The position numbers and the translations under genes are program-made. Below are positions 22,720-42,176 of a stretch of DNA of 64,000 nucleotides, piece by piece. The notes beneath the pieces are model-generated. The model ran no database searches. It was not told where the DNA came from and was given only the letters and a program-made list of their open reading frames with translations. Position 1 is the first letter of the stretch. Each line of letters opens with the position of its first letter. Origin of the DNA: Anniella stebbinsi (lineage: Eukaryota; Chordata; Lepidosauria; Squamata; Anniellidae); contig JARDYH010000005.1 in NCBI GenBank assembly GCA_029215795.1, positions 38,632,001-38,696,000 of the forward strand. Direction: 5' to 3'.

Positions 22720-22935
22720 CCGGAAGTCCCGCCCTAGTGGGAATCTCCCTCAGCCGGAAGTGAGATCATGAAACCGAGTGTCATGTGACCACCCCTCCCC
22801 CAGGTGATCACGTGACCCCCATGTGGTCATGTGACCCAATACCATTTTGGGCGGGGGTTTCAAACCGCTCCCGGATTGGCCCAGAGGGGTCATGTGACCC
22901 CTCTAACAACTCCCCAGGCTACTGCGGACCAATAG
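22720..22935 (+). promoter_or_regulatory. promoter-like region in left inverted repeat
   Basis: Contains ETS-type sites CCGGAAGT at 22720-22727 and 22754-22761, a palindromic E-box TCACGTGA at 22808-22815 with nearby TCATGTGA-type half matches, an inverted CCAAT box (ATTGG, 22875-22879) and a CCAAT box (22929-22933). All are repeated in the right inverted repeat. They lie about 100-310 bases upstream of the first ATG, with no clear TATA box. Promoter function is inferred from motif clustering and position. Confidence 0.6.
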
Positions 22936-23045
22936 GAAGTGGTTGTAGAGCTGTAACTCCACCCCCTTTGGTACAGGAGCAAAAGAAGTCGTTCTTGGCA
23001 TGCCCAGACAAGTTTTTCCTGCGGGGAGAGCATGGCAGATCCTAG
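22720..23045 (+). repeat. left terminal inverted repeat
   Basis: Reverse complement of 41850-42176 with scattered mismatches and small indels, from 'ccggaagtcccgc' to 'gatcctag'. The inner end includes the first codons of the left terminal gene (ATG at 23032). Confidence 0.95.
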
Positions 23046-24165
23046 CACACCTACAGGCACTTCAGCAATACCGGCCATGGTACCTGTGAAAATTCAATAC
23101 AAACAGACGAAAACTGCACAAAGGAAATGCACAAATGACCCGAGAAAGCGGTATCTCAGTTCTGAAGAGGATGTTTTCCTCCCATGTAAACTTCGACACG
23201 AGGAACAAGCCAAGACACCCCAACGATATGCTGATCTCCACCAGGAGCAAGCCAAGACACCCCAAACATGTGATGCTCTCCAGCCATGTGCTGATCTCCA
23301 CCAGGAGCAAGCAGGGTCACCACAGATGTGGTACAATATTTTGGAAGTCATCGCAGCAGAGAATGCTGTACCCATGGTAAAAAATTACATCTTTCTTTCA
23401 GCATGTGTGTGCAAGAGGTTTCTATCAGTATCAATATGTGTATGTACTTCTATTTATAGGTATCATCTTTGAATAGAGCTGCTTCAGAAAAGACAGGGGG
23501 AATGGCAACTGTGGATTTGACCATATCTGGAGATGATCACAGACAGGTATTTAATCATTTTTCTAAAATATTAAATTTAGTATGAAAACATATTGTGTAT
23601 TTTAAGATTAACTACTAATATTGTGTTAAATTGTTTTTAGGAATCGGATCTTACCATTGATCAGCCAGGACATGTTCTCATGAGGAGTATCCTAGGGCTG
23701 CCACACGCTGATTTCGATACCTCTTCTCCACGCAAACAGAGGAAATTAATGCTGTGTATTGTGAGAAGTGCTGTGTTTGGGGTTCTAAGACATTGTTTAA
23801 ATAAATATCTCAGGGAGACGTGTCCCGGTTGCCAAATCGAGGCAAAAGGTCAATCCTCGCATGAATGCTTAACTTGGCCCAAAACTGTCATTTCAAGAAA
23901 ACTTAGAGTTGTATGTGGAAAAATATGTTTCAAAAGCGTTCTCCACATTGTTATTTTAATAGCATATAGTTTAAACTGTTTACTTCTAAACAGTTTAAAC
24001 TACACAGAGGTTGATGAGGTTCTAGTTTTGATTACTAGAATTGGCAGATCCCAGAATGCCTTAAAGCATATGAACCAAATTCTCAAAAAAAGTGATGAGC
24101 TCATGTTAAACCACGTTATGGAAGTTATTAAAAGTAAGCCCTATAAACACTTTTTTCAGCTGTAG
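23032..24165 (+). CDS. left terminal spliced gene, three exons, zinc-motif protein
   Basis: Three exons fit together in one frame: 23032-23376 (donor ATG|GTAAAA), 23460-23546 (acceptor TTATAG|, donor CAG|GTATTT) and 23641-24165 (acceptor TTTTTAG|). All junctions are phase 0 and each exon is open, giving 318 residues. The N-terminus (MADPSTPTGT) lies in the inverted repeat. Exon 1 has degenerate repeats around HQEQAKTPQ (about residues 64-105). Exon 3 holds CPGCQIEAKGQSSHECL, a C-x2-C...H-x-C pattern that could bind zinc. I do not recognise a family. Its position under the terminal promoter fits an accessory or early gene, and accessory genes with zinc-type cysteine pairs are known in adintoviruses; a link to those is inference. 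The reading frame appears intact. Confidence 0.72.
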
Positions 24166-24266
24166 AATTAACTGCTTAAAAAAATGTCTGAATCGCTGTA
24201 ATTATAAAAGCAAAACTGTTGTGAAACAATGTACGACTACATGTCCCATCTCTCTATAAATGCTTT
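24166..24266. other. 3' flank of left terminal gene
   Basis: Short AT-rich stretch. The text 'gaatcgctgtaattataaa' at about 24190 recurs at 24361 and, slightly changed, at 24622. Confidence 0.5.
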
Positions 24267-24675
24267 CCCCAGCAACTGGTGTACATAGGCATATTGCCTC
24301 TGATACTGGATGTAACTTGTAGCTATCTGTTCATGCTTTGCTTTGGGTTGTGTCTCTGCTGAATCGCTGTAATTATAAAGCTAATTTTGTGTAAAATAAT
24401 AATAAAAAAGCAGGCACTAATTGCATACAAATGACACTGGCTAAAATTCCCTTTTCTCTACAACTGTTAAAGTTACATGAGCCCTGACCTGGATTTTATC
24501 TTGTCAGCCTACCCTCCCACCCATGTTCCCCAGCAACTGGTGTACATAGGCATATTGCCTCTGATACTGGATGTAACTTATAGCTATCTGTTCATGCTTT
24601 GCTTTGGGTTGTGTCTCTGCTGAATTGCTGTAATTGTAAAGCTAACTGTTTTGGAAAAAAAATTAAAAAGCAGGC
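24267..24675. repeat. duplicated segment with repeat fragments inside the element
   Basis: Two copies of a unit of about 149 bp (24267-24415 and 24527-24675) start with 'ccccagcaactggtgtacataggcatattgcctctgatactgg', text also found at 55795-55825 (inverted) and 63535-63580 and therefore a dispersed LINE piece, and end with 'aaaaagcaggc'. Between them, 24417-24515 is a half copy of the TAGGGTGACCA-family palindromic repeat. AATAAA at 24401-24406 could serve as the polyadenylation signal of the left gene. Confidence 0.7.
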
Positions 24676-24799
24676 TGCTCGTTTCTGGAAGAGGTGTGTT
24701 TATCTATTCTATGGGGATGGCGGAACCAGAGCGCTGGAAAAAAATTACTGATAGGAGGAGGAGTGAAAAACAGCCAGTGTCCGTTCAAAAAAGAATGAG

Positions 24800-24900
24800 C
24801 CAATGGGAGTAGAGGGCGGGGAAAAAACCCAACCAATCGGAAGAGATAGTCATACGGCGGGAAATCCAACCAATAGGGGAGTACTAGCTAGAGGGCGGCT
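24800..24900 (+). promoter_or_regulatory. internal promoter-like region upstream of polymerase leader
   Basis: Three CCAAT boxes (24800-24804, 24833-24837, 24870-24874), GC-box text (gggcgggg at 24814-24821; gagggcggc at 24891) and a consensus-like E2F site GGCGGGAAA (24856-24864) within 100 bases, just upstream of the first ATG of the exon chain. No TATA box is obvious. The E2F-like site would fit S-phase-linked expression of a replication gene, but that is inference. Confidence 0.6.
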
Positions 24901-24937: not shown

Positions 24938-26442
24938 ATGGCCTGCTGGAATGGCGAACGGTGGCCATCCAGAGATATACAAAGAAACCCTGTTGAAGGT
25001 AGTTATGGGGTGTTTTTTCTGAGTTGGTGAGGGGAAGGGAAGGGAAAGGGGGTTAATTGGGGTACTGGGAGAGGTAGCTGTGCATTGCTTTTGGTTTAAA
25101 ATTCTGGCTTTGAGGTTTACAGCTCTCTCTCTCTCTCTCTCTCTGTGGGTGGAGCAGTTTGATAATATTGAGGGGATGGGGTAATTGGGGGTACTGGGGA
25201 GAGGATGGAGAGGTTTTTTTGGTTTTTAAAATGTGGCTTCCCAGCTTCTGTATTGTGTGTGACTGGGGCATATGCCTGATTGCCTTAAGATTTCCAACTT
25301 AAAAAAGAAAAGGTGGAATTATAATGTGAATCCATTTTTAATATGGATCTTCCATATACTGCATGTATGGAGGGGAAGGGAAAGGTGTGTGTATGTGGGT
25401 AATTGGGGCTGTGCATTGGCTTTACAGTTCTCTCTGTGTGGGGGGGTGGGGGGGAAGGTTTAGAGGTTCCAGCCAGAAAAAAGGTGGGCTTGCTTTTGTG
25501 TATAATAATAATAATAATAATAATAAGTAAGTCAGAGAGTTTGGTTTAAAGTTTTACCAGCACATGGTGCCCCCACGCCCCTTGGATCAGTTCCCTAGTT
25601 CTTTTTTTTCCTTTCCAAAGCAACGGTTTTGCTTATCTGTAAAGGCCTTATGCTGTGGGCGGGTAAGTGGAGTGTTATCTTTTTTAAAAAACTATTAGGC
25701 GTGCCTCAGACTCATAGAAACTTTGTTATCTTTTTGGCCAGGCACTCCTCACAGTGTATACCACCCTTGGCTCCTGGGTGGGGGGAGCGGGGCATGTTTA
25801 TCCCTCTACTCTGCAATATCAAAAGGATTAATTTTATTATTTTTTCCATCTTATTTTAACGCAGCAAATCAATCTAAGTGGGGAAAAATGGAACATATTC
25901 AAAACAGCACTACACGTGGAAAACAACATGATGAAGACATGAGTAAGTTGTTTATAATAAAAAGTATTAAGTTAAAACTTATTGTTTTTATGAAAATACT
26001 TAATATATGCATTATTATTTACAGAACATTTCAAAAAATATATACTTTTAAGAAAACAGCAGTCATTACAACAGAAGCAGGACCTCTTGATGGTAAAGCA
26101 ATTTATATGTAGTAATTGTCTAATATTTTGTAAAGCATTCCTACAAAGTAATTTTTATTTTTTTGTTTTTTAGAAAAAAAAACACCAGAAAGCTACAACA
26201 GAAGCAGGACCTCTTGAGGGTAAAGCAATTTATATGTAGTAATTGTCTAATATTTTGTAAAAGCATGCCTGCAAATTGATTTTAAAGAAAACTGAAACAT
26301 GTTAATAATGAATATAATGGAACAGGTTACCTCCGGCTGTTTATTTTATTTTAACAGGGGAGAACAGATATGATAGAATGCCTTTTAAAAAACCACAGGC
26401 CAGAGCTGTACCACAATGGAAAAACCTTGGTAAAACATGGTT

Positions 26443-26473
<31 letters not shown>

Positions 26474-26761
26474 AGGGTAATTTGTAATTTTGTAATCCAT
26501 TCTTAAAATGTTTTTTCTTTTATAATTTTTAAAAAGGTCTTGATACTCTGGAACCAGTAGTGATTAATCTTACTGATGAAAATGAATCAGGTAGAGTAGC
26601 TTTGGAAGGGGTTTTTGTATATGCTCTTGATGAAAAAATAGAAATAATGGGTGTGGGTATAATAAGATCTGCGGATATTCTGTTTATTTTTACAGAGACT
26701 CCTGAGAACCCACCAATTAAAAAAGCAAGCATCTCAATGCAGCCTGACATCAAGAAAGCTG
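24938..26761 (+). CDS. 5' exon chain leading into DNA polymerase B
   Basis: Seven short exons with good splice sites form one continuous frame: 24938-24998 (donor AAG|GTAGTT), 25865-25942 (donor GA|GTAAGT), 26025-26092, 26174-26219, 26358-26429, 26537-26590 and 26696-26761. Exit phases 1, 1, 0, 1, 1, 1, 1 match each following entry, and the last joins the exon starting at 26921. All are stop-free in that frame. The product would be a basic leader of about 148 residues with no recognised domain. A second ATG at 24951, in better start context, gives a 41-codon product ending at a TGA that abuts the donor at 25942. Exons 26025 and 26174 are partial tandem duplicates. The exon model is inferred; only the open frames and splice motifs are seen. 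Confidence 0.6.
26446..26474. repeat. (GT)n microsatellite in intron
   Basis: About 14 GT units in the intron between exons ending 26429 and starting 26537. Confidence 0.9.
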
Positions 26762-26920
26762 GTAATTCTGTTTTTTTCAGCTGTACCTGTAATTGAAATT
26801 TCCAATTCAATTTTATTGAAATTTCGGATTTGTGAAAGGGGGGGTGGGGGGTGGCAGTTTGTAATTCACTAACAAGGGGTGTATGTTTACCCCTTTTGTT
26901 CTGTCTATTTTTTGTTTTAG

Positions 26921-27997
26921 ATAAAAGATCCATACCAATGAAAAGAGATCGTGCAGAGGCACAGGATGTCATGGGACAAAAAACTAAGAAGCAGAGAATG
27001 GAGGACATCCTATTGTCTGCAAACAATGAACCTGAGTCAATATGCTATGAAGAAATGTCATATGTTCAGCTGGTGTCCTGTCTAGAACAAAGTCTTAATA
27101 TTGCAGAAAAATGCGGTATGGTTCTGAAAACTAGAACTGAGGATACCATGTCCAGGATTAATAGTTCTGTAATTGTGGGTACATTGCCAGAGCATTCTCA
27201 GAATATTAAAAACCATCAAAAGTGTTCTGTTCATGGCCACACTTCATTTAAATCTGTTCAAGTAGGGGGTGACGGTCAAGGTTTTTTGAAAAAAGGGCGC
27301 CTTAAAAACAAACGTTTCCCATATTGGAAGAGGAGGATGGCTAAAATAGTAAATAGAGCTAAAAAAACACTCTCTGTCAGTAAAAAGAAAAGGCATACAG
27401 CCACTCCCCTTTCTGAAACAGTCCAGGACGCTGTGGCTCCAGAGGTACCCTCTCAAGAGGACTCACAGCAATCTGTAGCATCCAGTGATTCAAACCCTGT
27501 GAGCCAATGCCCCCATAACTCAGATTCCTCAGAGGAAGAGGATAGTGAACCTTTGCAGGTCTATGCGGAACACGTAAGACACTGGGAATGGAGACAGGGG
27601 GCGTTCAACGCACTGCATATTGCGGCAGAATACAGATTTGTTAATTTAGAATGTATACCATCGTTCTCACAGGCTGTTTTAGCCCTCTATAGCACAGTAC
27701 AAAACATACTTGATGATGTCAATCGTAGAATTTCACCAGAAGACTTTGTGCAGTTACGCCTCGATGGGGGTGGATTAAATTTTCTACTCTTTTCAATTAA
27801 AAGGCACAGAGATGTTTTAAATATAGATGACTTTCTATCTCATATTAGTAATCTTTTACAAAGCAATGCTGAAATATGTGGGAATACTAGTCTACGTTTG
27901 ATTGTAACGATTGTGACAGCCCCCAGGGGGGGTAGCAAAAGGCGGAAAATTAGTTCTATTGCTAGTAGCAAAATCATACTTAGAAAAAGAAAACACC
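26921..27997 (+). pseudogene. DNA polymerase B, N-terminal part, cut by L1
   Basis: The exon begins after the acceptor TTTTGTTTTAG| and stays open to the L1 insertion. It has a lysine-rich start, an acidic serine stretch (SDSSEEEDSEPLQ near 27523-27560), then FVQLRLDGGGLNFLLFSI and the following helical region. This matches the conserved N-terminal region of Polinton/adintovirus protein-primed polymerases, which lies upstream of the exonuclease. The frame continues in register after the L1 at 32342, where a Cys/Leu-rich segment typical of this protein resumes (LCFAGGLLAVMAE). The five codons after 27997 in this frame belong to the L1. The upstream open frame to 26851 is intron read-through. 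Confidence 0.8.
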
Positions 27998-30900
27998 GGG
28001 GCGTGGCCTAGCAGAACATGGGGTAGGTCGTATATCCTTCATCCTCCGAAAGAAGCAGTGAATTAAATGTAAATTCCCTATCTTAAAAGAGCGATTTGTT
28101 ACATATAAGTCTGCTAAGGAGAGGGGAAAGCTTACTGAAGAGGCTGCAGCTGGGAGAAGATAGGAGGGAGTAATGAATAGAAGATACGGAGGGAGGGTAG
28201 ACGTTATCCTGGAATGTTGGGCCGAGTTCCCCCCCCCCTAAGAGTTCTAAGAAGATTGGGACCAATGCCCAGGAAGCTGGTGAGGAGGGGGGTGAAAATG
28301 GGGGTGAATGTGGGGGGGAGGGTTAGGGAGGGGGGGATTGTGTTACACAGAGGGAGACCGACTTAAAGACGTGTGTGAAAGTGAGAGATGGAAAATAAAC
28401 TTAGATTGGCAACATTGAATGTTAAAGGGCTAGGAACAGTAATTAAAAGGAAAAGAATTGAAATGTTATTAAAGAACAAAAAAATAGATGTAATTTTTTT
28501 GCAGGAAACTCATCAGGCCAAAGATGGAGTTAATGAGCTTCAAATGAGGGAGGTGGGCGTTTATGAGAAGGCATATGGAACTTCGAAATCAAGAGGGGTG
28601 GCAATAATAATTTCAAAAACATGTGGCATAACTATTCAAAGTGTAAAGAAAGATAAAAACGGAAGGTTCCTTATTATGTTCTGCAGGTTGGGAGAAGAGG
28701 AATATGTATTGGTGAATGTCTATGCTCCAAATGGAAAACAAATGGATTTTATTGATGAAGTATTTAACGTGTTGGGAGAAGTGGGTAAAAAGCACATCGT
28801 GATGGCAGGTGACTTTAATATGGTACTAGATATAGGGAAAGATAGGGATAATATATTAAAAGATACTAAGAGGGTGGGGAAGACAGAGTTAAGCAAATTA
28901 ATGGAAGGGAAAGAATTAATGGACGTGTGGAGAGTTATAAGAGGGGAAGAAAGGAAGTATACCTTCTACTCACAGAGATTTAAGAGTTATTCAAGGATAG
29001 ATTATATTTTTGTATCAAAAAATATGTTACCCAAAATTATAGACTGTGATATTGGAGTTATCAAGGTTACTGATCACGCGTTAATGATAATGGACATGGA
29101 AACCAAAAAAGATTATAGACAAGCGAAGAGATGGAGATTGGATGTAAGGTTGCTGAATAAAAAAGATATAATGGAGAAGATAAAGAAAGAATTGCAGGAA
29201 ATATGGGAGATTAATGAAAAAGAGAATAACCGGCAGGACATATTGTGGGATACGATGAAAGCTGTGGTAAGAGGGATTTGTATTAGGGAAAGTTGTACAT
29301 TAAAAAAACAACAGGAAGCCCAAAATAAAAAGATTGAAGAGGAGGTAAGGAGTTTGGAAGAAAAGTTAAAGGAGACAAAAGATAAACGCCTAATTGCCCA
29401 AATTCAAGCTAAGAAAAAGGAATTAGAGAAAGAAGAATTAGAACAAGTACAAAAAAATTTGTTGTATTTAAAAAGAGATTTTTTTGAATATAGCAATAGG
29501 AATTCAAAGATGCTGGCCAGATCCACACAGTTAGAAAAGGCTAAGAATATGATAGGGACAATAAAGGATAAGTCAGGGAATAGTTGTAATTTAATGAAAG
29601 ATAAATTAAATATATTTAAGGATTTTTATAGTGAATTATATACATCAGGGTCGGGACCGCAAGATAAGGTACTGGAATATGTAGAGAGGAATTGGAAAAT
29701 AAAATTACAGGAGCAGGATAGGGAATATATGGAAGGTTTAGTTACGGGAAAAGAGATAGAGGGAGTTATTGATAAACTGAAAGGAGGAAAATCACCAGGG
29801 ATGGATGGTTTGGGGTCGGAGTATTATAAGCTTTTTAAAGGAATTTTATTACCAAGATTAAAGAAATTATTTAATAACATAATAGAGGGGGGGAAGACTC
29901 CGCCATCATGGGATTATTCCCTGATTATATTAATTCCAAAACCAGGTAAGGACTTAACGGATCCCGCATCATATAGACCAATTTCCTTAATAAATCAAGA
30001 TTCAAAGATATTTACAGCAATATTGGCAAAAAGAATGGCCACATTTATTTGTAAATATATTAAAAAAGATCAGTGTGAATTTATTCCGGGTAGGCAAATG
30101 TCTAACTTAATGGGAAGAGTATTAAGTATAATTAATATTATAAAAAAAAGGAATTTAAAAGCAGGCTTGTTAGCATTGGACATATTCAAAGCCTTTGATT
30201 GTGTGGAATGGCCAGCGCTTAAAACAATATTAAAAACCTTTGGGTTTGGAGACAAATTTATGGGAGTGATGGATAAGTTGTATAAAAACAATAAAGCGGA
30301 AATATTGGTTAATGATGGGTTAACACAACAGATTACACTAGCCCGAGGAACTAGGCAGGGATGTCCTCTTTCACCGATCTTATTCGCAATAGTAATAGAA
30401 ATTTTGGCAAATGTAATAAGGGAAGATGAAAGAGTGAAGGGGATAGGAAGAAAAGAGAAGATTAAAATGAATATGTTTGCGGACGATACTTTACTGACCG
30501 TAGAAGATCCCCTAGGGAGTGCAGAGGTGATTAAGAAACATTTAAGAGAATTTGGAGAAATTACGGGATTAAAAGTAAATTGGGGGAAGTCAGAAATGAT
30601 GTTATTTAATTATAATAAGGAAGAACTGGAAGAAGGTAAGGTTAAGTTGGGTCTTAGACTTAAAAATATAGTACGTTACTTAGGGATTAATATTGATAGA
30701 GATTTAGAAAGGTTAAAGGAACTTAATTTGGTAGCTTTAAAAAAACAAGTAGGGGAGAAATTAGAAGTATATAAGAAATTAAAACATTCTTGGTTTGGTA
30801 GAATAGCAATTATTAAAATGAAGATTTTACCTAAGATTAATTTTTTGTTTAGAATGTTACCAATTAAAATATCAGACGTAGAGTTGAAAAGTTGGCAAAA

Positions 30901-32333
30901 TATAATTAATGCATATTGTAATGGGAATAAGAAAGCTAGGATTAATAAAGGGTTATGGTACAAGGCTCAAAAGAAGGGAGGTTTAGGACTTCCAAATATT
31001 AAGTATTATTATATAGCTAATCAGTTAAGATATGTTATAAGTGGTATTCTAGGGGAGGAAGATTTGGAGTGGTTGGAGACGCAAACTAGGGAAATAGATT
31101 ATAAACTGAAAAATATTTTTTTCAAAAAAATTCAAAAGAAAGAATTAAAGGGACTGGACAACCCTTTGTTGATAAATATAGTGGAGATCTGGGAGAAATT
31201 TAGGGGGAAGCTGATACCAGGAGATTCACCACTTGCCCCAGTGGTAGTAGTGGAAAATTTCCCAAGAGTGTTAAAAGTGGAGATTGAAGCGAGATTGAAA
31301 GATAAGGAAATAATTAAGTTAAGGAAGTGGATGGAAAATTTGAAGGATAATGAGCAAATTAAAGAGCTATTGATAGGTCAAAAATTAGCATGGTTTAAAT
31401 GTATACAGTTAGGGAAATGGACTCAGGAATGGAAACTGAAAAATAATAAGTGTAGAAATAATACAAGATTTGAAGAGTTAATAGAGTCAAAAGGTAGGAA
31501 AGAAGAAAATAAAATTAAGAAAGGGTTGACTAGTGAGATATATAAACTATTGATAGAGGAGGAGTTTCAAAATTCACTTAAAGCAATAAAAAAGGTTTGG
31601 GAAGAGGATGTGAATGGAGAAATTAAGGAATACAACTGGGAGAGGTTGTGGAATGCAAGAATTAAGGAGAATTTTTATAAGGTATTGTGGAGATGGTATC
31701 TAACACCGGTTAGATTTCACCAGATAGATAAAAAAATATCTAAAAATTGTTGGAGGGGATGCCAGGAGGTTGGAACTTATTACCATATGTGGTGGAGCTG
31801 TGAATATGTACAAAAATTTTGGAAAAGGGTATTTAAAGAAATAAGTGAAATAATTGGAAGTAAAGTGGAATTAAACCCGAAGCTTGCTCTACTAGCAATT
31901 TGGGATAGAGGGGAAGAGGACAAAAACAAGAGAGAATTGATAAACAACCTCCTGACACCTGTTAGACTAATGATTGCAAAAAATTGGAAAGGACAAGGAA
32001 GCTATACAATAGAAGAATGGTATAAAGAAATATGGGATATGGCTTTGAATGATATGCTGACTTGTAAAATGAAATTAAAGAGGGGAATGTCCGGTAAAAA
32101 TGATTTTGGGGAAATATGGAGTCCCCTATTGGAATATGTATTAAGATTGGGGAAGGGACAAACACCTTCAAAAGAGTCGATAAATTTTTGGATAGAATAA
32201 AAGATTAAGAGAAGGTCTCATGGTGTGGGGGTGCACGGGGGGGATTATCGTGGATTATGTATGTATTTTATGTTATTTTATGTTATTATTATGTTGAAAT
32301 TAATAAAATTATTTCAAAAAAAAAAAAAAAAAA
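27998..32333 (+). mobile_element. L1 retrotransposon inserted in the polymerase gene
   Basis: Flanked by an 8-bp direct repeat, AAAACACC (27990-27997 and 32334-32341). It ends in an A-rich tail of about 20 bases preceded by AATAAA. The inserted sequence has a 390-base leader with a G-rich tract and a single complete ORF2. No ORF1 is present, so this copy is probably 5'-truncated or from a family whose ORF1 was lost; 28071-28160 could be a remnant of an ORF1 tail. The insertion separates two pieces of one gene that are in the same frame. Confidence 0.92.
28388..32200 (+). CDS. L1 ORF2 protein: endonuclease and reverse transcriptase
   Basis: 1270 codons without interruption, a normal ORF2 length. 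Residues 1-240 are an apurinic-type endonuclease with LNVKGLG, FLQETH, NVYAPN, GDFNMVLD, RIDYIFVSK and VTDHALM, so the expected catalytic residues are present. Residues about 510-720 are reverse transcriptase: IPKPGKDLTDPASYRPISL, FIPGRQM, LLALDIFKAFD (motif A), GTRQGCPLSPILFA (motif B) and FADDTLL (motif C, near residue 697). Near residues 1120-1145 is the C-terminal Cys/His motif (CWRGCQ...YYHMWWSC). Coding sequence is A-rich on the sense strand, as in other L1s. The protein would nick target DNA and copy its RNA there. An open frame with intact motifs points to recent insertion. Confidence 0.95.
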   Translation: MENKLRLATLNVKGLGTVIKRKRIEMLLKNKKIDVIFLQETHQAKDGVNELQMREVGVYEKAYGTSKSRGVAIIISKTCGITIQSVKKDKNGRFLIMFCRLGEEEYVLVNVYAPNGKQMDFIDEVFNVLGEVGKKHIVMAGDFNMVLDIGKDRDNILKDTKRVGKTELSKLMEGKELMDVWRVIRGEERKYTFYSQRFKSYSRIDYIFVSKNMLPKIIDCDIGVIKVTDHALMIMDMETKKDYRQAKRWRLDVRLLNKKDIMEKIKKELQEIWEINEKENNRQDILWDTMKAVVRGICIRESCTLKKQQEAQNKKIEEEVRSLEEKLKETKDKRLIAQIQAKKKELEKEELEQVQKNLLYLKRDFFEYSNRNSKMLARSTQLEKAKNMIGTIKDKSGNSCNLMKDKLNIFKDFYSELYTSGSGPQDKVLEYVERNWKIKLQEQDREYMEGLVTGKEIEGVIDKLKGGKSPGMDGLGSEYYKLFKGILLPRLKKLFNNIIEGGKTPPSWDYSLIILIPKPGKDLTDPASYRPISLINQDSKIFTAILAKRMATFICKYIKKDQCEFIPGRQMSNLMGRVLSIINIIKKRNLKAGLLALDIFKAFDCVEWPALKTILKTFGFGDKFMGVMDKLYKNNKAEILVNDGLTQQITLARGTRQGCPLSPILFAIVIEILANVIREDERVKGIGRKEKIKMNMFADDTLLTVEDPLGSAEVIKKHLREFGEITGLKVNWGKSEMMLFNYNKEELEEGKVKLGLRLKNIVRYLGINIDRDLERLKELNLVALKKQVGEKLEVYKKLKHSWFGRIAIIKMKILPKINFLFRMLPIKISDVELKSWQNIINAYCNGNKKARINKGLWYKAQKKGGLGLPNIKYYYIANQLRYVISGILGEEDLEWLETQTREIDYKLKNIFFKKIQKKELKGLDNPLLINIVEIWEKFRGKLIPGDSPLAPVVVVENFPRVLKVEIEARLKDKEIIKLRKWMENLKDNEQIKELLIGQKLAWFKCIQLGKWTQEWKLKNNKCRNNTRFEELIESKGRKEENKIKKGLTSEIYKLLIEEEFQNSLKAIKKVWEEDVNGEIKEYNWERLWNARIKENFYKVLWRWYLTPVRFHQIDKKISKNCWRGCQEVGTYYHMWWSCEYVQKFWKRVFKEISEIIGSKVELNPKLALLAIWDRGEEDKNKRELINNLLTPVRLMIAKNWKGQGSYTIEEWYKEIWDMALNDMLTCKMKLKRGMSGKNDFGEIWSPLLEYVLRLGKGQTPSKESINFWIE

Positions 32334-32341
32334 AAAACACC

Positions 32342-32847: not shown

Positions 32848-34199
32848 CGCTTGCAGATAAAGTAGAATGTGTTCCTAGACAGTATTGCAAAAACTGTGAA
32901 TCATACCAGAAATTGAATCATGATATTTATCGTTGTCCAGGAAAACATTGCAAAATATGCTGTGGATTTAGTACGGGTGATGAAAAGCATCAGTGTTACA
33001 TGACCAGTCTTAAGAAACCTGAGATATCTGTAAAATATGTGTTCTATGATTTTGAAGCCCACCAATCAACAGGTTTTCATGTTCCTAATTACTGTTTTGC
33101 AAAAGCTTTTGCAGGTGAAACATTACAAAGCTTTAAAGTTGAACTGTCTTCTGGTAAGAATAAAAAACGTAGTGTGAAACCGCACGGAAATGTAATCCCT
33201 TGGGATTTGGCAGGCAAAACATGGGAATTTAAGGGTGAACAGTGTCTGTCTGAATTTATTCAGACGTTCACAGATAGTACGCAGTTTGAAGACTGCACAT
33301 TTATAGCGCATAACTCAAAGGTTTATGGTGGTTACTTTATTCTTAGTGGCCTTATACATCAAACACTGGACGTAGATCTTCTTACTCAAGGAGGGAAATT
33401 GATCTGTATCACTGTTAAGGGTTTAAAAATCAAATTTATAGATTCCCTTTCTCATCTCCCCATGGCACTCTCTAAACTACCAAAGGCTTTGGGATTTGAA
33501 GGTGCAAAAGGGCACTTTCCCCATTATTTTAACAAACCTGAGAATTGGAATTATGTGGGGCCTATGCTTAAAGTAGATGACTATGGTGTGAATCATATGA
33601 TGCCGGCAGAAAGAGAGTCTTTTTTAGCATGGTATGAAGAGAACAGGTCTGAAACCTTTGACCTGCAGAAGGAGTTAGCCCTTTATTGCAGACAAGATGT
33701 TGATATTTTGGAGCAAGCCTGTACCAAGTACAGACATGAAATCATGGAGATGACTCAGACAGTGAGAATGATATGCAAGGGTAGGAAATCTGTGTGGAAG
33801 AGGCTCGCTATAGACCCTTTTCAATATCCCACACTTGCTAGTACATGTTTTGCTATGTACAAGTTTAAGTTTCTCAAAGAATATTGCATAGCTATCCCAC
33901 CACCAGATAATTACCATAGCATTCTTAAACGCTTCTCTACACCATCAATTCAATGGTTGTGCTACATGGAGCACAAATACAAAATTCAGATTCGGCACAC
34001 CTTAAAGGGTGGAGAATTCAAAGCTGGTAATTATTTTCTAGATGGTTATGCAATAATAGACAATAAGAAAACAGCTTTTGAATTTCACAGTTGTTTTTGG
34101 CATGGTTGTGTACTCTGTTATTCTCCAGATGCTCAGAACCCTTTGCTGGGTAAGCCATACGAATACCTGTTCAACAGTACAGAAAAAAAGGACTGCTGA
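32841..34199 (+). pseudogene. DNA polymerase B, exonuclease segment
   Basis: Carries further cysteine pairs (YCKNCESY, CPGKHCKICC) and then the 3'-5' exonuclease. Exo I is YDFEAHQ near 33046-33066 with its D-x-E pair. Exo II (FIAHNSKVYGGYFIL, near 33300-33345) has Gly where this family normally has the metal-binding Asp. Exo III is YCRQDVDIL near 33685-33710. The frame closes at 34199 just after a run of seven A (34183-34189). The continuing frame is offset by +1, consistent with one extra A in that run. The Asp-to-Gly change would be expected to weaken proofreading if the protein were made. Confidence 0.88.
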
Positions 34200-35661
34200 G
34201 CTGAAACTTATGGGGTTTGAAGTCAAAGCCATCTGGGAACACGAGTGGCGCCAAATGCTAAAAACAGATGTGGAACTCCAAAATTTTCTTGTTGATGATA
34301 ATTTTCCAGAACCTCTCGAACCTGGAAATGCCCTCTTTGGAGGGCGTACTAATGCGATCTCTCTGTATTGTAAACCTGAAGAGGGGGAGCAGATTCATTA
34401 CTATGAGTTTACAAGTCTGTATCCTTATGTAGGCAAAAACAAGGCATACCCTCTTGGCCACCCTGAAATAATTTATGAAAAATTTAAGCCTCTGTCCGCT
34501 TACTTCGGCCTTGCAAAAGTTAAAATTTACCCACCGCGGGGTCTTTTCTTTCCTGTTCTCCCTACTAAGGTTAGTGGCAAGCTCATGTTTGTCCTGTGTA
34601 AAACTTGTGCACAAACTCATCAGCAGGGAACATGCGAACATTCAGATGAGGAGCGTGCTCTGTTAGGAACATGGTGCACTATTGAATTGAATGTCGCTAT
34701 AGAAAAGGGGTACAAGGTTGTGGAAGTTTACGAAGTCTGGCATTTTGAAAATAAGTCCAGTCGTTTGTTTTCAGATTATATTGATATGCATCTTCGCCAG
34801 AAACAGGAGGTTTCAGGGTACCCCCAGTGGTGTGTCAGTGCAGAAGATAAAAAGCAATATATTGATACTTATCTCCAGCATGAAGGGATTGCATTGCGAC
34901 CCAGTCAGATTGAGGTGAATCCAGCAAAGAGGCAAATTGCAAAATTATTCTTAAATTCTCTGTGGGGAAAATTTGGCCAGAGAACAAATCTGCCTAACAC
35001 ACAGTTGGTGAGAGACCCAGATGAGTTATTTCAGCTTCTGTTTTCTGATGCTTATGATGTTTCAATGTGTGAATTTATTGATGATGAGGCTGTCTGTGTG
35101 TCCTGGAAGCATTCTGAAGATCGGGTATTGGCTCTAGGTAGGAAAAATGTGTTCATAGCAGCCTTTACAACGGCATATGCGCGTCTGCAGCTCTACAATT
35201 TGCTAGACAAATTGAAAAAGCGTTGTCTCTACCACGATACCGATTCTGTGATATTTGTGAGTCAGGAGGGGCAATGGATGCCCCCTCTTGGTGATTACTT
35301 AGGAGACCTCACAAGTGAACTACCCGCAGATCAATTTATCACAGAGTTCGTGTCAGCAGGTCCAAAATCTTATGGCTATAAAACTGTTTCGGGGAATGTT
35401 ACAATCAAGGTCAAAGGGATCACACTGAACACTGCTAATTGTGAAAAAATTAATTTCAACAGTCTCAAAGATCTGGTTTTTAACTACGTCTCAGACAGGG
35501 ACCAGGGGCCAGCTCGTGAGATGGCAGTACAACAACCAGGTATTGTAAGGAACAAACGCAGGTGGACTCTTGAATCAAAGCCTGTCAGAAAAACTCAAAA
35601 AGTGGTCTATGACAAAAGAGTTATTCATCAAGGCTTTAAAACATTGCCTTATGGTTTTTGA
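34191..35661 (+). pseudogene. DNA polymerase B, polymerase domain
   Basis: Holds the palm motifs of a protein-primed family B polymerase. Motif A region is TSLYPYVGKNKAYPLGHP near 34408-34460, motif B is KLFLNSLWGKFGQ near 34942-34981, and motif C is YHDTDSVIF near 35230-35256, followed by KSYGYKT and KVKGITLN. In motif A the residue before FTSLYP is Glu where catalytic Asp is expected. The C-terminus is at a TGA (35659-35661), two bases before the ATPase ATG at 35664. The upstream part of this open frame (34078-34190) is the wrong frame of the exonuclease segment. Replication of the viral DNA would be its role; the accumulated changes say this copy cannot do it. Confidence 0.9.
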
Positions 35662-35663
35662 AT

Positions 35664-36337
35664 ATGTATACACGTTGGAAACATCCATTTTCAGCTATTC
35701 TAGCAGGACCTAGCAACTGTGGGAAACTTTTTTTATCAAACAAATGTTGGACAATGCTAATTCTGTTTTTTCAGCTGTACCTGAAAATATTGTGTGGTGT
35801 TATGGTTGTTGGCAGCCTTTGTACAAAGAACTACTGTGTAAATATCCTTTTATTCATTTTGTGCAAGGTCTGCCTGAAAAATTTGATGATACAGTTTTGT
35901 TACCTCTCAATAAAGTAAATTGTCTTGTGATAGATGATTTAATGCAGTCTGTATGTGATAATAGTGATGTTGAAAAGGTCTTTACTCAATATGTACAGCA
36001 CAGGAATTTGAGTCTGTTTTTCATAACTCAGAATATATTCTGCAAGGGAAAAAGTATCCATACCATAACTCTAAATGCTAAATATTTGGTCTTGTTCAAA
36101 AACCCGAGAGATAAATTGCAGATAATGACTTTAGCTCGCCAGTTGTACCCACAAAACAGCCAATTCTTATTGGAGGCCTTTGCGGATTCTACAAGCAAAC
36201 CTTATGGTTATCTGGTGGTGGATTTACATGCCACAACCCCCAATAATTACAGGCTGAGAACTGGCCTGTTCCCTCCAGACCTGCCTGTAGTGTACATCAT
36301 GAAAAAAACAGGTGGTAACAAAAGGCAGCGCCTTTAG
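35664..36337 (+). pseudogene. genome packaging ATPase, FtsK/HerA type, one frameshift
   Basis: Two frames together cover the usual length of about 220 residues. The first (35664 onward) gives the N-terminus and Walker A (AGPSNCGK, near 35703-35726); the second (open from 35744) gives the rest: Walker B LVIDDLM near 35925-35945, the sensor-like FFITQNIF, then YLVLFKNPRDKLQIMTLARQ and KPYGYLVVDL. These are typical of Polinton packaging ATPases, which pump DNA into the capsid. The shift lies between about 35725 and 35743, beside a run of seven T, and amounts to one missing base. The stop at 36335-36337 is followed 41 bases later by the next gene. Confidence 0.92.
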
Positions 36338-36378
36338 TGTTGTACTATGTATTACTGCGCAGTTCCCAGAGAGGTAAC

Positions 36379-36707
36379 ATGTCTCTCTGTGTAAAAAGAA
36401 ATCTTCCGCTCTTAAAGCATCTTATTAAGATGTCTCCTCAACAAAGAAAAGCTATTTTATGCTCAGCATCTGATGACCTGATTGCTGCCATCTCAGAAAT
36501 AGCACTCAATACTTTAAAAGGCAACATTCCTCTATCTCCTCAACAGGTACGCATATTAAGAAAGAAGCAGGGTATTATTAAAAATTGAGTAACAAGAAAA
36601 TCACTCTGAAAAGAAAGAAATTTTTGGTGAAGCAATCTGGTGGTTTTCTGGTGCCATTACTAAGTTTTGCAATTCCTCTACTCACAGGCCTTTTAATCAA
36701 CCAATAA
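36379..36707 (+). pseudogene. small conserved Polinton protein with hydrophobic C-terminus, one frameshift
   Basis: The first 70 codons (36379-36588) read MSLCVKRNLPLLKHLIK..., then SDDLIAAISEIALNTLKGN and SPQQVRILRKKQ. An ATG at 36379 is preferred over the earlier GTG frame start. A TGA at 36586-36588 closes the frame. The frame offset by one base continues from about 36591 with a basic stretch and KQSGGFLVPLLSFAIPLL, ending at TAA 36705-36707. The two parts have the order seen in a small gene found next to the ATPase in Polintons and adintoviruses. Its function is not settled; a virion role is often suspected. The stop overlaps the next ATG (TAATG). Confidence 0.7.
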
Positions 36708-37522: not shown

Positions 37523-38833
37523 TTACATATAGTCAAACAGGACATTTCTTCTGTGATTTATCTCTATCACATTGTCAAAACCCCCATACACAATCATGTT
37601 GATCATGTCAGCCAGGACTCTACTAAATCGAAATTCTGCCCTAAGGTTTCCCATTTTTATCAAAGAGTAGTGGTCTCCACCTTCTTGGTCTGGAGTCGGG
37701 TCAAAGGCAAAAAGTGTGTAGCCTCGAACATAGTCCTCACGGTTAATTAAAAGAGACCTGTCTTTCATATGTTTCCCCGCTGTTTGTATGAGACTCATGT
37801 ATTCTCTTACACAGTTTCCCTCTTCGAAAACAGGCTGGAACGGTTTTGTTGGGATCTGTTCTCCATCCAGGTAAAGGGCCGCGAAATGAATATTAAAATG
37901 TTTAAAATTAAAAGGATTTTAAAGGTAAGATCCGCTGTAAGAATCATTATCAACCATGCCTATAATAACCTGCTTCGGTAATGGCCCCAAAAATAGGTTT
38001 TCCTGATTGGCGACACGACTCCCCCTTGGAATGCTAAACACCTTCATACTCACACGATCCACAGGATACTTGGCATTAGCAGTCAACAGAGCCTCGGCAT
38101 GGCCTAAACACACGCCTGGGGCGACTCTCACTTTCTTAACAAAAAGTGACGCTGACAAAATCTGTAGTTTGTAATGCCTAGCTGCGTTGTCTGACATTAA
38201 GCAGAATGTATCTTTGCTACAAGTAAGTTTGATCTTCAGATCAACCCCGTTTAATAACAGGTTTTCTTGAAAAAAAAGATCAGCATGGAGATGCCCCAGA
38301 AGGTCTATTTTCCGGCTTTCAGTGGTCAGGTTTGCTCTTCTATTAAAACCAAGATTATTCCCACCCCTGTCACCAGATTCAAGTTCCCCCGGTGTATCTT
38401 TGTAAAATAGTCCTGCAGAGAATTGTGTTGCCAATGCATCCTCGCTGTAATTCAGCACAGATTCAAAATAGGCTCTATATGGATATGAATTATTACTCTG
38501 ACTTATTAATCTATCACCCAGCATCACATCCAGCTGGCTAAACATGGATGCAATTGGATAATTCACCAGACCTACATTAGCGTCTGCTGCAAGGTTGGTT
38601 CTGTCAGGATTGACAATTTTGCAACACACATACAGCAAGGTGTTATTTAAGTCCATATAATCCTCACCATTTCCTGCAATGAAGAAATCCAGGGGTGCTG
38701 TGTCTGTAAGGGCTGACAAGGGGGGTACCTCGATATACAGACTTCTCTCAATGCTGGTCTGCGTGGGTCCAATGTTGAATAGGTCAAGTTCAGATTTAGT
38801 GCATTCTTCAGAGCCACAGTGGATAAAAGCCAT
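37523..38833 (-). pseudogene. major capsid protein (double jelly roll), one in-frame stop
   Basis: From the ATG at 38833 the frame is open for 304 codons, meets a TAA at 37919-37921 and then continues in the same frame, without another stop, to 37523. The whole is 437 codons including both stops, a normal length for Polinton capsid proteins. The first part has ERSLYIEVPPLSALTDTAPL and SMFSQLDVMLGD; the end has REDYVRGYTLFAFDPTPDQ, GNLRAEFRFS and NVIEINHRRNVLFDYM, all typical of this family. It would form the hexon-like shell. A single nonsense codon is the only lesion seen. It is the last gene of the - strand set and lies 9 bases after the pVI/pX-like gene. Confidence 0.95.
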
Positions 38834-38842
38834 AGCTATGGT

Positions 38843-39324
38843 TTAAAATATATCTCCTTTAGCTGGAAAAGACCGACGCCTGTTTGTTACAACTCTTCTC
38901 CTGTGGCTTTTCTTCCCTCTCTGGCGTCTCTTTCCTCTCTGCGCTTTTCTTTTAAAGGGGTGTGGTGGACCAATCAATCTTACCCATGATGCTTTTTTAG
39001 AGCCCTCCTCCTTTTAATATACATTAGCCCTGACCCGTCTTGTTGTGGTCGTGGTGTGTTCACTCTGTTCAACACTTCTTTTGTAACGTGACTGATTACA
39101 TCTTTAGCAATATTATGAGCAGCAGTTTTTGCGTGGGGTTTAATGATGTCTATGCCTCTTCTCAAAAGGGGAATAGCTATTCGGAAAAGGCTCCTGAAAA
39201 CCCCACCAAGCCCTGCTCCATACATAACAGGGGTCCCCTGGTATCCTGTCAGGGTGTACCCCGCCTGAGCTTTATAATAATTACGATAAACGGACGGGTC
39301 ACCATATGTTTTCAGAATAGCCAT
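38843..39324 (-). pseudogene. pVI/pX-like minor virion protein, frame-shifted basic tail
   Basis: The start ATG at 39324 gives MAILKTYGDPSVYRNYYKAQ, then a glycine-rich stretch and an amphipathic segment (FRSLFRIAIPLLRRGIDII), conserved in Polinton minor capsid candidates. The first frame ends at 38980 after RRRALKKHHG. An adjacent frame, open to TAA 38843-38845, has no ATG of its own and is very basic (KRKAQRGKRRQRGKKSHRR), ending in GDIF. A short basic tail with that type of ending is usual for this protein, so a one-base shift near 38985-39005 is likely. The family comparison with adenovirus pVI/pX is inference. The penton stop lies 5 bases upstream of the ATG. Confidence 0.65.
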
Positions 39325-39328
39325 TTTC

Positions 39329-40054
39329 TTAAAATACAAAGGTTCTCCGAGGGTGAAAGTGTAGCTTCACCGTCACCTTACCAAAACGAAATGGTATGTT
39401 TTTGTTCTGATCATTCTTTATTTCAACGGTGATAGTGTCAATGTGATCCTTGGTTACAGGGATGTAGTGCGGTTTGTCATAGCCAATGTTGACACATTCG
39501 TTGTTTTTTCCATGCACAGGTATGCAGCGCAGTAAAGGCACATAATAATCTCCAACTATCTGGTGCTCCACAATGTCTGTGTAAATGTATAAGGTGTTAA
39601 AACCTCCAGTAATGTCAGCAGGAAAAGGCAATTTTTTAACATTCTGTTCAGGAAACAGGCCTAATATGTTGGCCAATTCTGCACTAGCTAGAAAGGAATA
39701 TTGTTCTGTTGCTTGCAGACTAATTTTTCGAGAAACAGTATCGTAGTGCAGGATTACTTTCGGACCACCTCGTATAAGGCTGTTCATGTTTTCAAGCAAC
39801 TCAGGGATGTCTGCATAATAGCCACGTCGCAGAACAAAATGATACCTAGTTTCTGTACTAGCAATTTCAAAGCGTGCATCTCTAGTTAGAGTATCCCAGC
39901 TGTGAGGGTACTGAATTTCAACTAGGCCAACTTCCCAGACACCAGGAAGGTCCAAAGCTCTACCTAATTGAATAGTACATGCTGAACTCTTGTTTGGAAA
40001 AGTCGCTGCACAGGCATTGCTGGGTAAGGTAACGTAAAACCCACCATCACCCAT
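39329..40054 (-). CDS. penton-like minor capsid protein (single jelly roll)
   Basis: 241 intact codons from the ATG at 40054 (an upstream GTG start is less likely). It begins MGDGGFYVTLPSNACAATFP, then LPGVWEVGLVEIQYPHSW, the hallmark opening of Polinton minor capsid (penton) proteins, and ends in a beta-rich region (RFGKVTVKLHFHPRRTFVF). It would sit at the capsid vertices. Integrase ends 4 bases upstream and the pVI/pX-like gene starts 5 bases downstream, so these genes probably share a transcript. No lesion is seen. Confidence 0.92.
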   Translation of the reverse strand: MGDGGFYVTLPSNACAATFPNKSSACTIQLGRALDLPGVWEVGLVEIQYPHSWDTLTRDARFEIASTETRYHFVLRRGYYADIPELLENMNSLIRGGPKVILHYDTVSRKISLQATEQYSFLASAELANILGLFPEQNVKKLPFPADITGGFNTLYIYTDIVEHQIVGDYYVPLLRCIPVHGKNNECVNIGYDKPHYIPVTKDHIDTITVEIKNDQNKNIPFRFGKVTVKLHFHPRRTFVF

Positions 40055-40058
40055 TCTT

Positions 40059-41150
40059 CTATACAGGTTCACAAAGATCAGAAGCGCACACCCAACTGTT
40101 GAACTTGCTAGGCCAGCCTAACCATTTCACTAAATGGTACTTTCTCCTACCCTTTCCTTTTGTTGCTAAGATTTCTTCAATCCTGTATGTCCTGTCCTCC
40201 TTGGCATTAACTTTCTGTAATTCCTCAGGATAGAAGTTGCCCACCACTACCTCACCTTCATAATATTTTAACTGGTATACAGGCCTCTTTGATCTTTTGA
40301 TGACTTCATCCACTATAAATAACTCGGTGGTAAAGTTTTGTTCGTAACCCTTAGCAAAGACACCCTTGCATTTAGAAATGCGTACATGATCCCCTTTTTT
40401 AAAATACGCCAACTCCGGCTTTCTTTTTATACCGTCAAAATAAACGGTTCTCCAAACGGCCAAGGAGTTCGACTGATTAACGTCAACAGGCCTAGTTTTT
40501 ATAGTTCTGTGAAAACTATGGTTATAACTTTTTAGAAATTGGGGTAACACACCTATATATGTGAATGTATTGTTGGCTGTGAAATACCTCCACATTTTAG
40601 TTTTTAAAGTTCTGTTGAAGCATTCCACAACTGCTGCTTTGACTTCATTGCTGGTAACAAAATGGTGTATTCCTTGGTGTTTGAATAGTTTCTTCACTGT
40701 TCTGTTTAGAAACTCCCTGCCTTTGTCTGTCTGTATTTTGACAGGGACTCTTCCATCTTGTGTGAAAATAGCTTTAAAAGCAGTGGCCACCTGGCCGCCT
40801 GTCTTGTCTTTTAGAACCCTTGCCCATGCATATTTAGACAAAATGTCTATAATGGTTAAAATGTACTTGTAACCCTTGTTATATTGAGAAAACTGTTGCA
40901 TATCAACTAGATCGGCCTGCCATTGCGAATCCACTTCAGACACAATTGTCTTATTTCTTTTAAAATGGATCCTGGCTGGTTTATGCAGCATGTAAGCATC
41001 CTGATCTGACAACCATTTGGTAACCTCTCTTTCGCAGTGGTTTTTGCTCTGTTTTTTGGCCTCCTGAAATAGGGAGTTGACTCCATCCAAACTCCCAACA
41101 TGTCCAGGGGTATAATAAATATTCCTTAGGATCTCTTCATGAGTTGCCAT
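40059..41150 (-). CDS. retrovirus-type integrase with chromodomain
   Basis: 363 intact codons. The N-terminal region (IYYTPGHVGSLDGVNSLF and VTKWLSDQDAYMLHKPAR) is the form seen in Polinton integrases. The catalytic core carries the D-D-E set at D80 (WQADLVDM), D142 (IQTDKGREF) and E176 (VVECFNRTLK). A C-terminal chromodomain (YRIEEILATKGKGRRKYHLV, then WLGWPSKFNSW) covers about residues 320-360 and would guide insertion toward certain chromatin. The protein joins the viral ends to host DNA. It is the first gene of the - strand set, 81 bases downstream of the final exon of the right terminal gene. No lesion is visible. Confidence 0.96.
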   Translation of the reverse strand: MATHEEILRNIYYTPGHVGSLDGVNSLFQEAKKQSKNHCEREVTKWLSDQDAYMLHKPARIHFKRNKTIVSEVDSQWQADLVDMQQFSQYNKGYKYILTIIDILSKYAWARVLKDKTGGQVATAFKAIFTQDGRVPVKIQTDKGREFLNRTVKKLFKHQGIHHFVTSNEVKAAVVECFNRTLKTKMWRYFTANNTFTYIGVLPQFLKSYNHSFHRTIKTRPVDVNQSNSLAVWRTVYFDGIKRKPELAYFKKGDHVRISKCKGVFAKGYEQNFTTELFIVDEVIKRSKRPVYQLKYYEGEVVVGNFYPEELQKVNAKEDRTYRIEEILATKGKGRRKYHLVKWLGWPSKFNSWVCASDLCEPV

Positions 41151-41230
41151 ATTTGTAAGTTAACACACAGGAATGGAGGCGTAAGTTTTACAACAAAACG
41201 TTTTTACTGCTGCAAATCACCAAAGAAAAA

Positions 41231-41863
41231 TCATTCTTCTATTTCCATGTCTGGGGAAACACACGAAATGCAGGAAATGTTGACAGTCTGTGAAGTGTCA
41301 ATGTTCAAGTTCTCAAAAGCACCACACACATCACTCATCTGTGTAAAAAAAGAAAGTTTTAGTCATCCACAATCAAGACCCTGTACAAACAATTAAGAAC
41401 ATTTTACTAAAGACATAAAAACACTCACCAGTGTGTCATCTGTCTCTGCTTCAAGAGTCTCCAGGGGAGGCTGGTAGGTAGAACAGGATGTGGTAGGATC
41501 TCCCTGCTCCGTTTTCTCTTCGGGCCGTGGGGCTATTTTCGTAAGACCACAGCCATTAACGGTTTCAACAGGCTCACACCCCTGATCGGTACAAGCCATG
41601 CACCAAGCAACAAAGGATGGGGTTTCAGGATCCGGATCCGGCCCTGATGTCAGTTGGTAAGGAACCAGTTTTCTGGGTTGAAGCTTCATGGGTGCCAGTG
41701 GAGAAGAAAAACCCGCAGGTCCTACGTATGAGGGTATGCTCTCGGTTAAAGCAGAGGTATTCTGAGACACTGGTGGCGTATGCACAGTTTTCACCTTTCT
41801 AGGCTGAAGCTTCAAGGGTGCCCACTGTTTAGAAAAAGCCCAGAGACCTCTAGGATCCGCCAT
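41231..41863 (-). CDS. right terminal spliced gene, two exons, CxxC protein
   Basis: Exon 1 is 41429-41863 (donor CTG|GTGAGTG) and exon 2 is 41231-41338 (acceptor TTTACACAG|); both are phase 0, giving 180 residues. It starts with MADP inside the inverted repeat, like the left gene, and then diverges. Residues 10-75 contain the repeated motif AP(L/M)KLQPRK. Cysteine pairs follow: WCMACTDQGC in exon 1 and ISCISCVSP in exon 2; the tail is acidic (DMEIEE). Both pairs could bind zinc. I recognise no family. Small CxxC/acidic proteins under a terminal promoter recall accessory, oncogene-like proteins of small DNA viruses, but no LxCxE motif is present. Reading on past the donor gives a slightly longer 156-codon unspliced form. 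Confidence 0.7.
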
Positions 41864-42176
41864 GCTCTCCCCTCAGGAAAAACTTGTCTGGGCATGCCAA
41901 GAATGACTTCTTTTGCTCCTGTGCTAAATGGGGTGGAGTTACAGCTCTACAACCACTTCCTATTGGTCCGCAGTAGCCTGGGGAGTTGTTAGAGGGGTCA
42001 CATGACCCTCTGGGCCAATCTGGGAGCGGTTTGAAACCCCCGCCTAAAATGGTATTGGGGCCACATGACCACATGGGGGTCACGTGATCACCTGGGTGGA
42101 GGGGTGGTCACATGACACTCGGTTCCATGATCTCACTTCCGGCTAAGGGGGATTCCTGCTAGTGCGGGACTTCCGG
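41850..42176 (-). repeat. right terminal inverted repeat
   Basis: Inverted counterpart of 22720-23045. Includes the ATG of the right terminal gene (41861-41863). Differences are scattered single bases and small indels. Confidence 0.95.
41955..42176 (-). promoter_or_regulatory. promoter-like region in right inverted repeat
   Basis: Holds the same sites as the left repeat: ACTTCCGG (ETS type) at 42135-42142 and 42169-42176, TCACGTGA at 42080-42087 with nearby TCACATGA-type sites, and CCAAT elements in both orientations near 41960-42015. Confidence 0.6.

What the first reader, a model, noticed from the sequence alone, without database searches (positions are those of the whole stretch)
22720..42176. 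Endogenous adintovirus/Maverick-Polinton with most of its gene set still readable
One stretch has inverted repeats, integrase, family B polymerase, packaging ATPase, major capsid, penton and small virion genes in two converging sets. Integrase, penton, the 238-aa gene and both terminal genes are open; the others have only one or two lesions each. Such well-preserved copies in a land vertebrate suggest relatively recent germline entry or transposition.
Basis: partly seen in the sequence, partly recalled or inferred. Interest (0 to 1): 0.92.

Follow-up and report, generated by a model that had tools for sequence, protein, structure and literature searches.

The report
Decayed Maverick virus in lizard DNA
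This is an inactivated copy of a known kind of virus-like mobile element (Maverick/Polinton, or beta-adintovirus) in what is most likely a lizard genome, and its less usual feature is a set of apparently spliced genes near its ends.

Summary
An element at about 22,720-42,176 has inverted repeats of about 326 bp and two converging gene sets: PolB, ATPase, PM, PZ against integrase, penton, PW and major capsid protein (MCP). The MCP groups (SH-aLRT 100) with two Elgaria lizard copies inside a squamate set, so the host is probably an anguimorph lizard. Mavericks of lizards and turtles are published; this is a new member of a known kind.

Corrections: a 4.3-kb LINE splits PolB, which also has two frameshifts. 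ATPase and PM frames are broken and the MCP has one stop. No protease was found, and no exact 6-bp target-site duplication. The repeats differ by 4.6%, which does not suggest very recent entry.

Each terminal gene starts at an ATG at the inner edge of a repeat. A chain of small exons behind CCAAT/E2F-type sites runs in phase into the PolB frame (36.0 against at most 11.1 in 120 control tiles and 13.3 in 200 shuffles), though exact exon boundaries are uncertain. The main survey of vertebrate Mavericks reports no introns in intact elements. RNA data would decide.

The parts
22720..23045 (.). left terminal inverted repeat; the outermost 23-bp unit has one more copy at 22702-22724
   Evidence: 310 of 325 aligned sites identical to the right arm, 3 gap columns
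41850..42176 (.). right terminal inverted repeat
23032..24165 (+). left terminal gene, proposed 3 exons 23032-23376, 23460-23546, 23641-24165, all phase 0; ATG at the inner edge of the repeat
   Evidence: exons translated one by one, open; exon 3 has a 54% identical homologue P0121 over 133 aa. Splice scores of this gene are modest (1.3-4.1)
41231..41863 (-). right terminal gene, proposed 2 exons 41863-41429 and 41338-41231; ATG at the inner edge of the repeat
   Evidence: donor score 6.2, acceptor score 10.1, both phase 0; no homologue
24798..24874 (+). promoter-like cluster: three RRCCAAT boxes around the only TTTCCCGCC (E2F-type) site of the window
   Evidence: factor names recalled
24938..26761 (+). 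proposed leader of seven exons (hand model: 24938-24998, 25865-25942, 26025-26092, 26174-26219, 26358-26429, 26537-26590, 26696-26761), in phase with the PolB frame at 26921; boundaries uncertain
26921..27997 (+). N-terminal part of PolB (expected terminal-protein domain); first ATG in frame 26938
   Evidence: by position next to PolB; no Pfam match
27998..32337 (+). LINE inserted into PolB, with open 1271-aa endonuclease/reverse transcriptase frame and poly-A
32338..32847 (+). PolB continuation after the LINE (expected vOTU region), by position
   Evidence: fold failed
32814..35661 (+). PolB exonuclease and palm parts in two frames (32814-34199 and 34060-35661)
   Evidence: PF03175 E 3.7e-19 and 1.8e-26, successive parts of the profile
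35640..36337 (+). packaging ATPase in two frames (P-loop-like piece in 35640-35918, rest in 35714-36337)
   Evidence: motif (recalled) and position only, no Pfam match
36379..36707 (+). PM-like small gene, broken (frames 36319-36588 and 36582-36707)
   Evidence: position between ATPase and PZ as in PMC8097293
36707..37423 (+). PZ-like gene, 238 aa, open
   Evidence: by position
37523..38833 (-). major capsid protein, full length with one internal stop
38980..39324 (-). PW-like small virion gene, 114 aa, open
   Evidence: by position
39329..40054 (-). penton/minor capsid gene, 241 aa, open
   Evidence: by position
40059..41150 (-). integrase, 363 aa, open; rve core with D,D-33-E spacing (motif recalled) and C-terminal chromodomain
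24265..24669 (+). interspersed-repeat insertion(s) in the left accessory region
   Evidence: families D3, D4 and pair I3, partly also found at about 44.1-44.4 kb

Best explanation
This is an endogenous, now defective Maverick/Polinton of the vertebrate (beta-adintovirus-like) lineage in a squamate, probably anguimorph, genome. While active, the integrase would have inserted linear viral DNA into the chromosome. A protein-primed PolB would have copied it from its inverted repeats, and the capsid, penton, PW and ATPase genes would have built and filled particles. It is disabled by a LINE in PolB, frameshifts in PolB, ATPase and PM, one MCP stop and the lack of a recognisable protease gene. The identity of integrase, PolB and MCP and the breaks are shown; the other names rest on position and the life cycle on family knowledge. 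Its terminal genes and a PolB leader look spliced, with start codons at the inner edges of the repeats and CCAAT/E2F-type sites; that is inferred from sequence alone.
For: Inverted repeats. rve and chromodomain. PolB. MCP 84-88% identical to two Elgaria proteins and an unnamed ENA contig, grouped at SH-aLRT 100 inside squamates. Double jelly-roll fold of a full-length relative matched PBCV-1, Sputnik and mavirus capsids. Converging order as published for vertebrate Mavericks (PMC8097293). LINE and frame breaks. Exon chain joined to the first leader exon and to the PolB phase: 36.0, with 0 of 120 control tiles (max 11.1) and 0 of 200 shuffles (max 13.3) reaching it.
Against: No protease where the published order puts it. 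No exact 6-bp target-site duplication in 1680 end pairs. The published (AGT)2 or (AG)3 end motifs were not recognised by eye. ATPase, penton, PW, PM and PZ rest on position. The OTU domain could not be tested. The splice models have no RNA support and several weak sites; my hand-drawn leader scores well below the best chain (17.3 against 37.5) and unconstrained chains in 1 of 120 tiles and 1 of 200 shuffles match it, 12 of 120 and 16 of 200 under the harsher penalty.
Confidence: 0.95

Rival explanations
1. A recently acquired element: the genes are readable because insertion was recent, and lesions are few.
For: Four core genes and both terminal first exons open; MCP departs at only 1 of 68 highly conserved columns; one clear nonsense change seen where 6.0-7.7 are expected from the repeat divergence.
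Against: Repeat arms differ by 4.6%; the element had time to receive a full LINE and interspersed repeats; PolB, ATPase, PM and MCP are damaged and no protease was found, so it could hardly act alone.
Confidence: 0.25
2. The apparent exons in 24.9-26.8 kb are chance, or belong to a captured or interrupted host gene, rather than to the viral polymerase gene.
Against: Exons in compatible phase lead into the PolB frame, with introns of 81-159 nt after the first in my model; under the same end constraints 0 of 120 tiles and 0 of 200 shuffles reach the best chain.
Confidence: 0.35
3. The lineage had no protease gene, rather than this copy losing it.
For: PZ and MCP stops lie only 100 bp apart and the gap is compact.
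Against: Protease loss is also reported for single decayed copies in a bird and in placental mammals (PMC8097293; PMC9683012 passages).
Confidence: 0.35

Closest known systems
Vertebrate Mavericks of Barreat and Katzourakis 2021 (incl. Anolis carolinensis type sequence and intact Terrapene carolina element)
   Same: Two converging modules, gene order polB-atp-pm-pz and int-mcp-pw-Mcp, inverted repeats, accessory regions at both ends.
   Different: No protease found, no exact 6-bp duplication, LINE in PolB; accessory genes and a PolB leader appear spliced whereas no introns were reported in genes of intact elements.
Beta-adintoviruses (Terrapene box turtle adintovirus)
   Same: rve integrase with chromodomain; MCP relatives in turtles at up to 78% identity.
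   Different: The reference itself was not compared; OTU-like domain not demonstrated here.
Adenoviruses (E2 region, recalled)
   Same: E2F-type sites near an early promoter and an upstream exon supplying the start for pTP/polymerase resemble the leader proposed here.
   Different: No integrase in adenoviruses; here the priming domain is expected to be fused to PolB; the resemblance is by recall, not tested.

Membership tests
Maverick/Polinton | terminal inverted repeats | tested here: met
Maverick/Polinton | retrovirus-like (rve) integrase | tested here: met
   PF00665 E 7e-13, above cut-off
Maverick/Polinton | family B DNA polymerase | tested here: met
   PF03175 in two frames above cut-off; gene broken
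Maverick/Polinton | double jelly-roll major capsid protein | tested here: met
   (fold made on the full-length relative P0002, 88% identical)
Maverick/Polinton | packaging ATPase | tested here: inconclusive
   position and P-loop-like motif; no Pfam or PHROGs match
Maverick/Polinton | penton / minor capsid protein | tested here: inconclusive
   open 241-aa gene at the expected place; no profile match
Maverick/Polinton | adenoviral-type protease downstream of the MCP | tested here: not met
   only 100 bp between MCP and PZ stops; none of 29 frames in and around the element matched a protease profile. Loss is known in decayed copies
Maverick/Polinton | 6-bp target-site duplication | tested here: not met
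   0 of 1680 end pairs exact, 14 with one mismatch
Adintoviridae | integrase with C-terminal chromodomain | tested here: met
   PF00385 E 2.7e-5, 24.4 bits, just under the 25.1 cut-off
Adintoviridae | PolB with N-terminal OTU-like domain | tested here: inconclusive
   single-sequence fold of 32338-32844 gave pLDDT 35
Adintoviridae | hexon recognisable by BLASTp to adintovirus hexons | tested here: inconclusive
   turtle relatives up to 78% identical; the reference protein itself was not compared

The most novel reading that the evidence does not exclude
A reptile Maverick lineage has an adenovirus-like early region: a CCAAT/E2F promoter drives a multi-exon leader spliced onto the priming end of its DNA polymerase, and the inverted repeats carry matching promoters (ETS, E-box and CCAAT sites) and start codons that launch two different spliced accessory genes inward.
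Probability: 0.4. Interest if true: 0.62.

Novelty: new member of a known kind. Interest (0 to 1): 0.42.

Why it matters
It adds an annotated squamate copy whose closest MCP relatives follow the broad host order (a squamate set, turtles and Gavialis, amphibians, fishes), with exceptions, which bears on long host association. If the spliced leader and repeat-edge start codons are real, Mavericks share a gene-expression layout with adenoviruses, and annotations that assume intronless genes miss their accessory and N-terminal exons. That is testable with lizard RNA data.

Tried and rejected
Scans of IMG/VR with the MCP piece, the MCP alignment, a PolB piece, the integrase and the left-gene alignment gave no relatives. 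PDB sequence search with the MCP piece and alignment: none. Right terminal gene homologues: none of 9 candidates. Single-sequence fold of the OTU region: meaningless. PHROGs: four matches at E 0.034-0.091, taken as chance. In one search the look-up of the PolB acceptor failed (its last two lines are void); score and phase were redone. The conserved-column part stopped on an error (no row passed a filter) and was redone with lower limits. The LINE remnant left of the element (21595-22613) does not resume on the right side, so it gives no empty site. A terminal exon at 26781 after the last leader exon was dropped because the intron would be 19 nt.
Full report
Observation. The inverted repeats are real: about 326 bp at 22720-23045 and 41850-42176, 310 of 325 aligned inner sites identical, 3 gap columns. 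Between them lie two converging gene sets. Pfam confirms PolB in two frames (E 3.7e-19 and 1.8e-26), the integrase core (E 7e-13) and a chromodomain just under cut-off. The MCP piece 37922-38842 has 1589 homologues at E <= 0.001 of 3227 candidates; the best 120 were listed. The rest (ATPase, PM, PZ, PW, penton) I name by order, size and motif, following the vertebrate Maverick order in PMC8097293 (abstract, Results, first part of Discussion and passages seen).

What it is. In a tree of 54 MCP rows (the window piece and 53 of the 120 listed homologues, chosen for host spread; 67 listed rows not used) the window groups with two Elgaria multicarinata copies and an unnamed ENA contig at SH-aLRT 100, inside a set with Anolis, Tiliqua and two geckos (support 89). 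Turtles and Gavialis form another set; amphibians and fishes lie further out, while other lizard and snake rows (Pogona, Thamnophis, further geckos) fall elsewhere, so squamates are not one clade; 20 of 51 inner branches are open. The host is therefore probably an anguimorph lizard; this is inference, the window's genome could not be searched. A model of the Elgaria MCP P0002 (pLDDT 80.7) matches PBCV-1, Sputnik and mavirus double jelly-roll capsids and, among predicted viral structures, a bracovirus-annotated protein (35% identical), adomavirus LO7 and an adintovirus protein.

State of the genes. Integrase, penton, PW and PZ are open; the MCP has one stop; the ATPase and PM run in two frames each; PolB is split by a LINE with an open 1271-aa frame (27998-32337) and has two further frameshifts. 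The published order puts the protease behind the MCP; here PZ and MCP stops are 100 bp apart, and none of 29 frames tested matched a protease profile. No exact 6-bp duplication was found among 1680 end pairs; 14 pairs had one mismatch, one of them nearly symmetric to the repeats. Protease loss is also reported for decayed copies in a bird (PMC8097293) and placental mammals (PMC9683012, passages).

Age. K2P between repeat arms is 0.048; the plain difference without CpG transitions is 0.037. At a recalled neutral rate of 1e-9 per site per year this is about 19-24 million years, with at least a two-fold margin. Against this, the 12 element frames counted (ATPase and PM left out) show one clear nonsense change, in the MCP, where 6.0-7.7 are expected; the LINE frame shows none where 3.1-4.0 would be expected had it the same age. 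The frames were picked as open stretches, which biases this count downwards. So the LINE is probably younger, and the repeat clock may run fast or the arms may have differed at entry. The MCP departs at 1 of 68 columns conserved at 95% (rank 61 of 121) and 2 of 115 at 90% (rank 88 of 121). 'Recent' is neither shown nor excluded.

Spliced genes. The left terminal gene reads as three exons, all phase 0, from an ATG at the inner edge of the left repeat; its third exon has a 54% identical homologue over 133 aa, the one match among 35 candidates. The right gene reads as two exons from the matching ATG of the right repeat, with a strong donor and acceptor (6.2 and 10.1) but no homologue among 9 candidates. 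Both repeats thus encode the same first codons and then different proteins. By base composition, open stretches of 145 and 153 codons have P 0.0003 and 0.0009; with the stop-triplet frequency actually seen there (0.0256 and 0.0403) the chance is larger, about 0.02 and 0.002 (last step by hand). Splice scores of the left gene are modest (1.3-4.1).

PolB leader. Between 24938 and 26761 my hand model has seven short exons that keep phase and lead into the PolB frame at 26921 (one base of the split codon from upstream; acceptor score 6.2), with introns of 866, 82, 81, 138, 107, 105 and 159 nt. A free chain search scored the region 37.5; 0 of 120 control tiles of this window (best 19.3) and 0 of 200 dinucleotide shuffles (best 16.8) reached this; with a harsher penalty 23.7 against 12.3 and 9.0. 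Forced to start at the first leader exon and to end in the PolB phase, the best chain scores 36.0 (harsher 22.3); 0 of 120 tiles (max 11.1; 5.1) and 0 of 200 shuffles (max 13.3; 8.4) reach it. My own model scores only 17.3 (5.3): under the same constraints 0 of 120 tiles and 0 of 200 shuffles reach it (harsher 0 and 1), but unconstrained chains do in 1 of 120 tiles and 1 of 200 shuffles (harsher 12 and 16). The best free chain shares three exons with my model exactly and two in part, omits one, adds others, and reads the last in another phase. So the region is unusually rich in in-phase exons that reach PolB, while the exact boundaries are unsettled. The penalty and limits were set after I had seen the region.

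Promoter sites. Upstream lie three CCAAT boxes and the only TTTCCCGCC of the window; each repeat carries two CCGGAAGT, one TCACGTGA and two CCAAT sites. Factor names are recalled; binding is not shown.

How it works. By family knowledge (PMC11071308 passages): polinton PolB has an N-terminal terminal-protein domain, then a vOTU protease, exonuclease and palm; replication is protein-primed. Packaging into capsids and rve-driven integration are family knowledge too. Here the LINE sits where the priming and vOTU parts would meet, judged by position. The spliced leader would place a host-type, S-phase-like promoter in front of the polymerase; this is inference.

Known or new. Lizard and turtle Mavericks, an intact box-turtle copy and tortoise adintovirus reads are in print (PMC8097293; PMC10812802 passages). 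PMC8097293 states that no introns were seen in genes of intact elements. Searches touching Maverick/Polinton/adintovirus splicing listed 20 of 78,621, 9 of 9 and 15 of 38 papers; from titles and abstract starts, and passages of two of them (PMC8363768, PMC11071296), I saw none describing it in vertebrate Mavericks. The founding adintovirus paper was not held, so I do not claim it is unpublished. I file the element as a new member of a known kind.

Noticed in passing
window 27998-32337: LINE with poly-A and one open 1271-aa endonuclease/RT frame; only about 390 bp precede the frame, so no ORF1 of usual size (recalled) fits. Flanked by a short repeat (CACC) merging with the poly-A.
   Followed up: partly
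window 21595-22613: Second, 71% identical LINE fragment that ends just before the element and does not resume on the other side.
   Followed up: partly
window 44574-44721: U1 spliceosomal RNA match on the minus strand, 106 bits against a cut-off of 69.5; gene or pseudogene not tested.
   Followed up: no
window 44091-44422: Palindromic repeat (146-nt arms, 94% complementary) related to the insertion at 24411-24513 in the element.
   Followed up: no
window 23178-23324: The left terminal gene contains three copies of a 45-nt unit spaced 42 and 60 nt, read as HQEQAKTPQ-like protein repeats.
   Followed up: no
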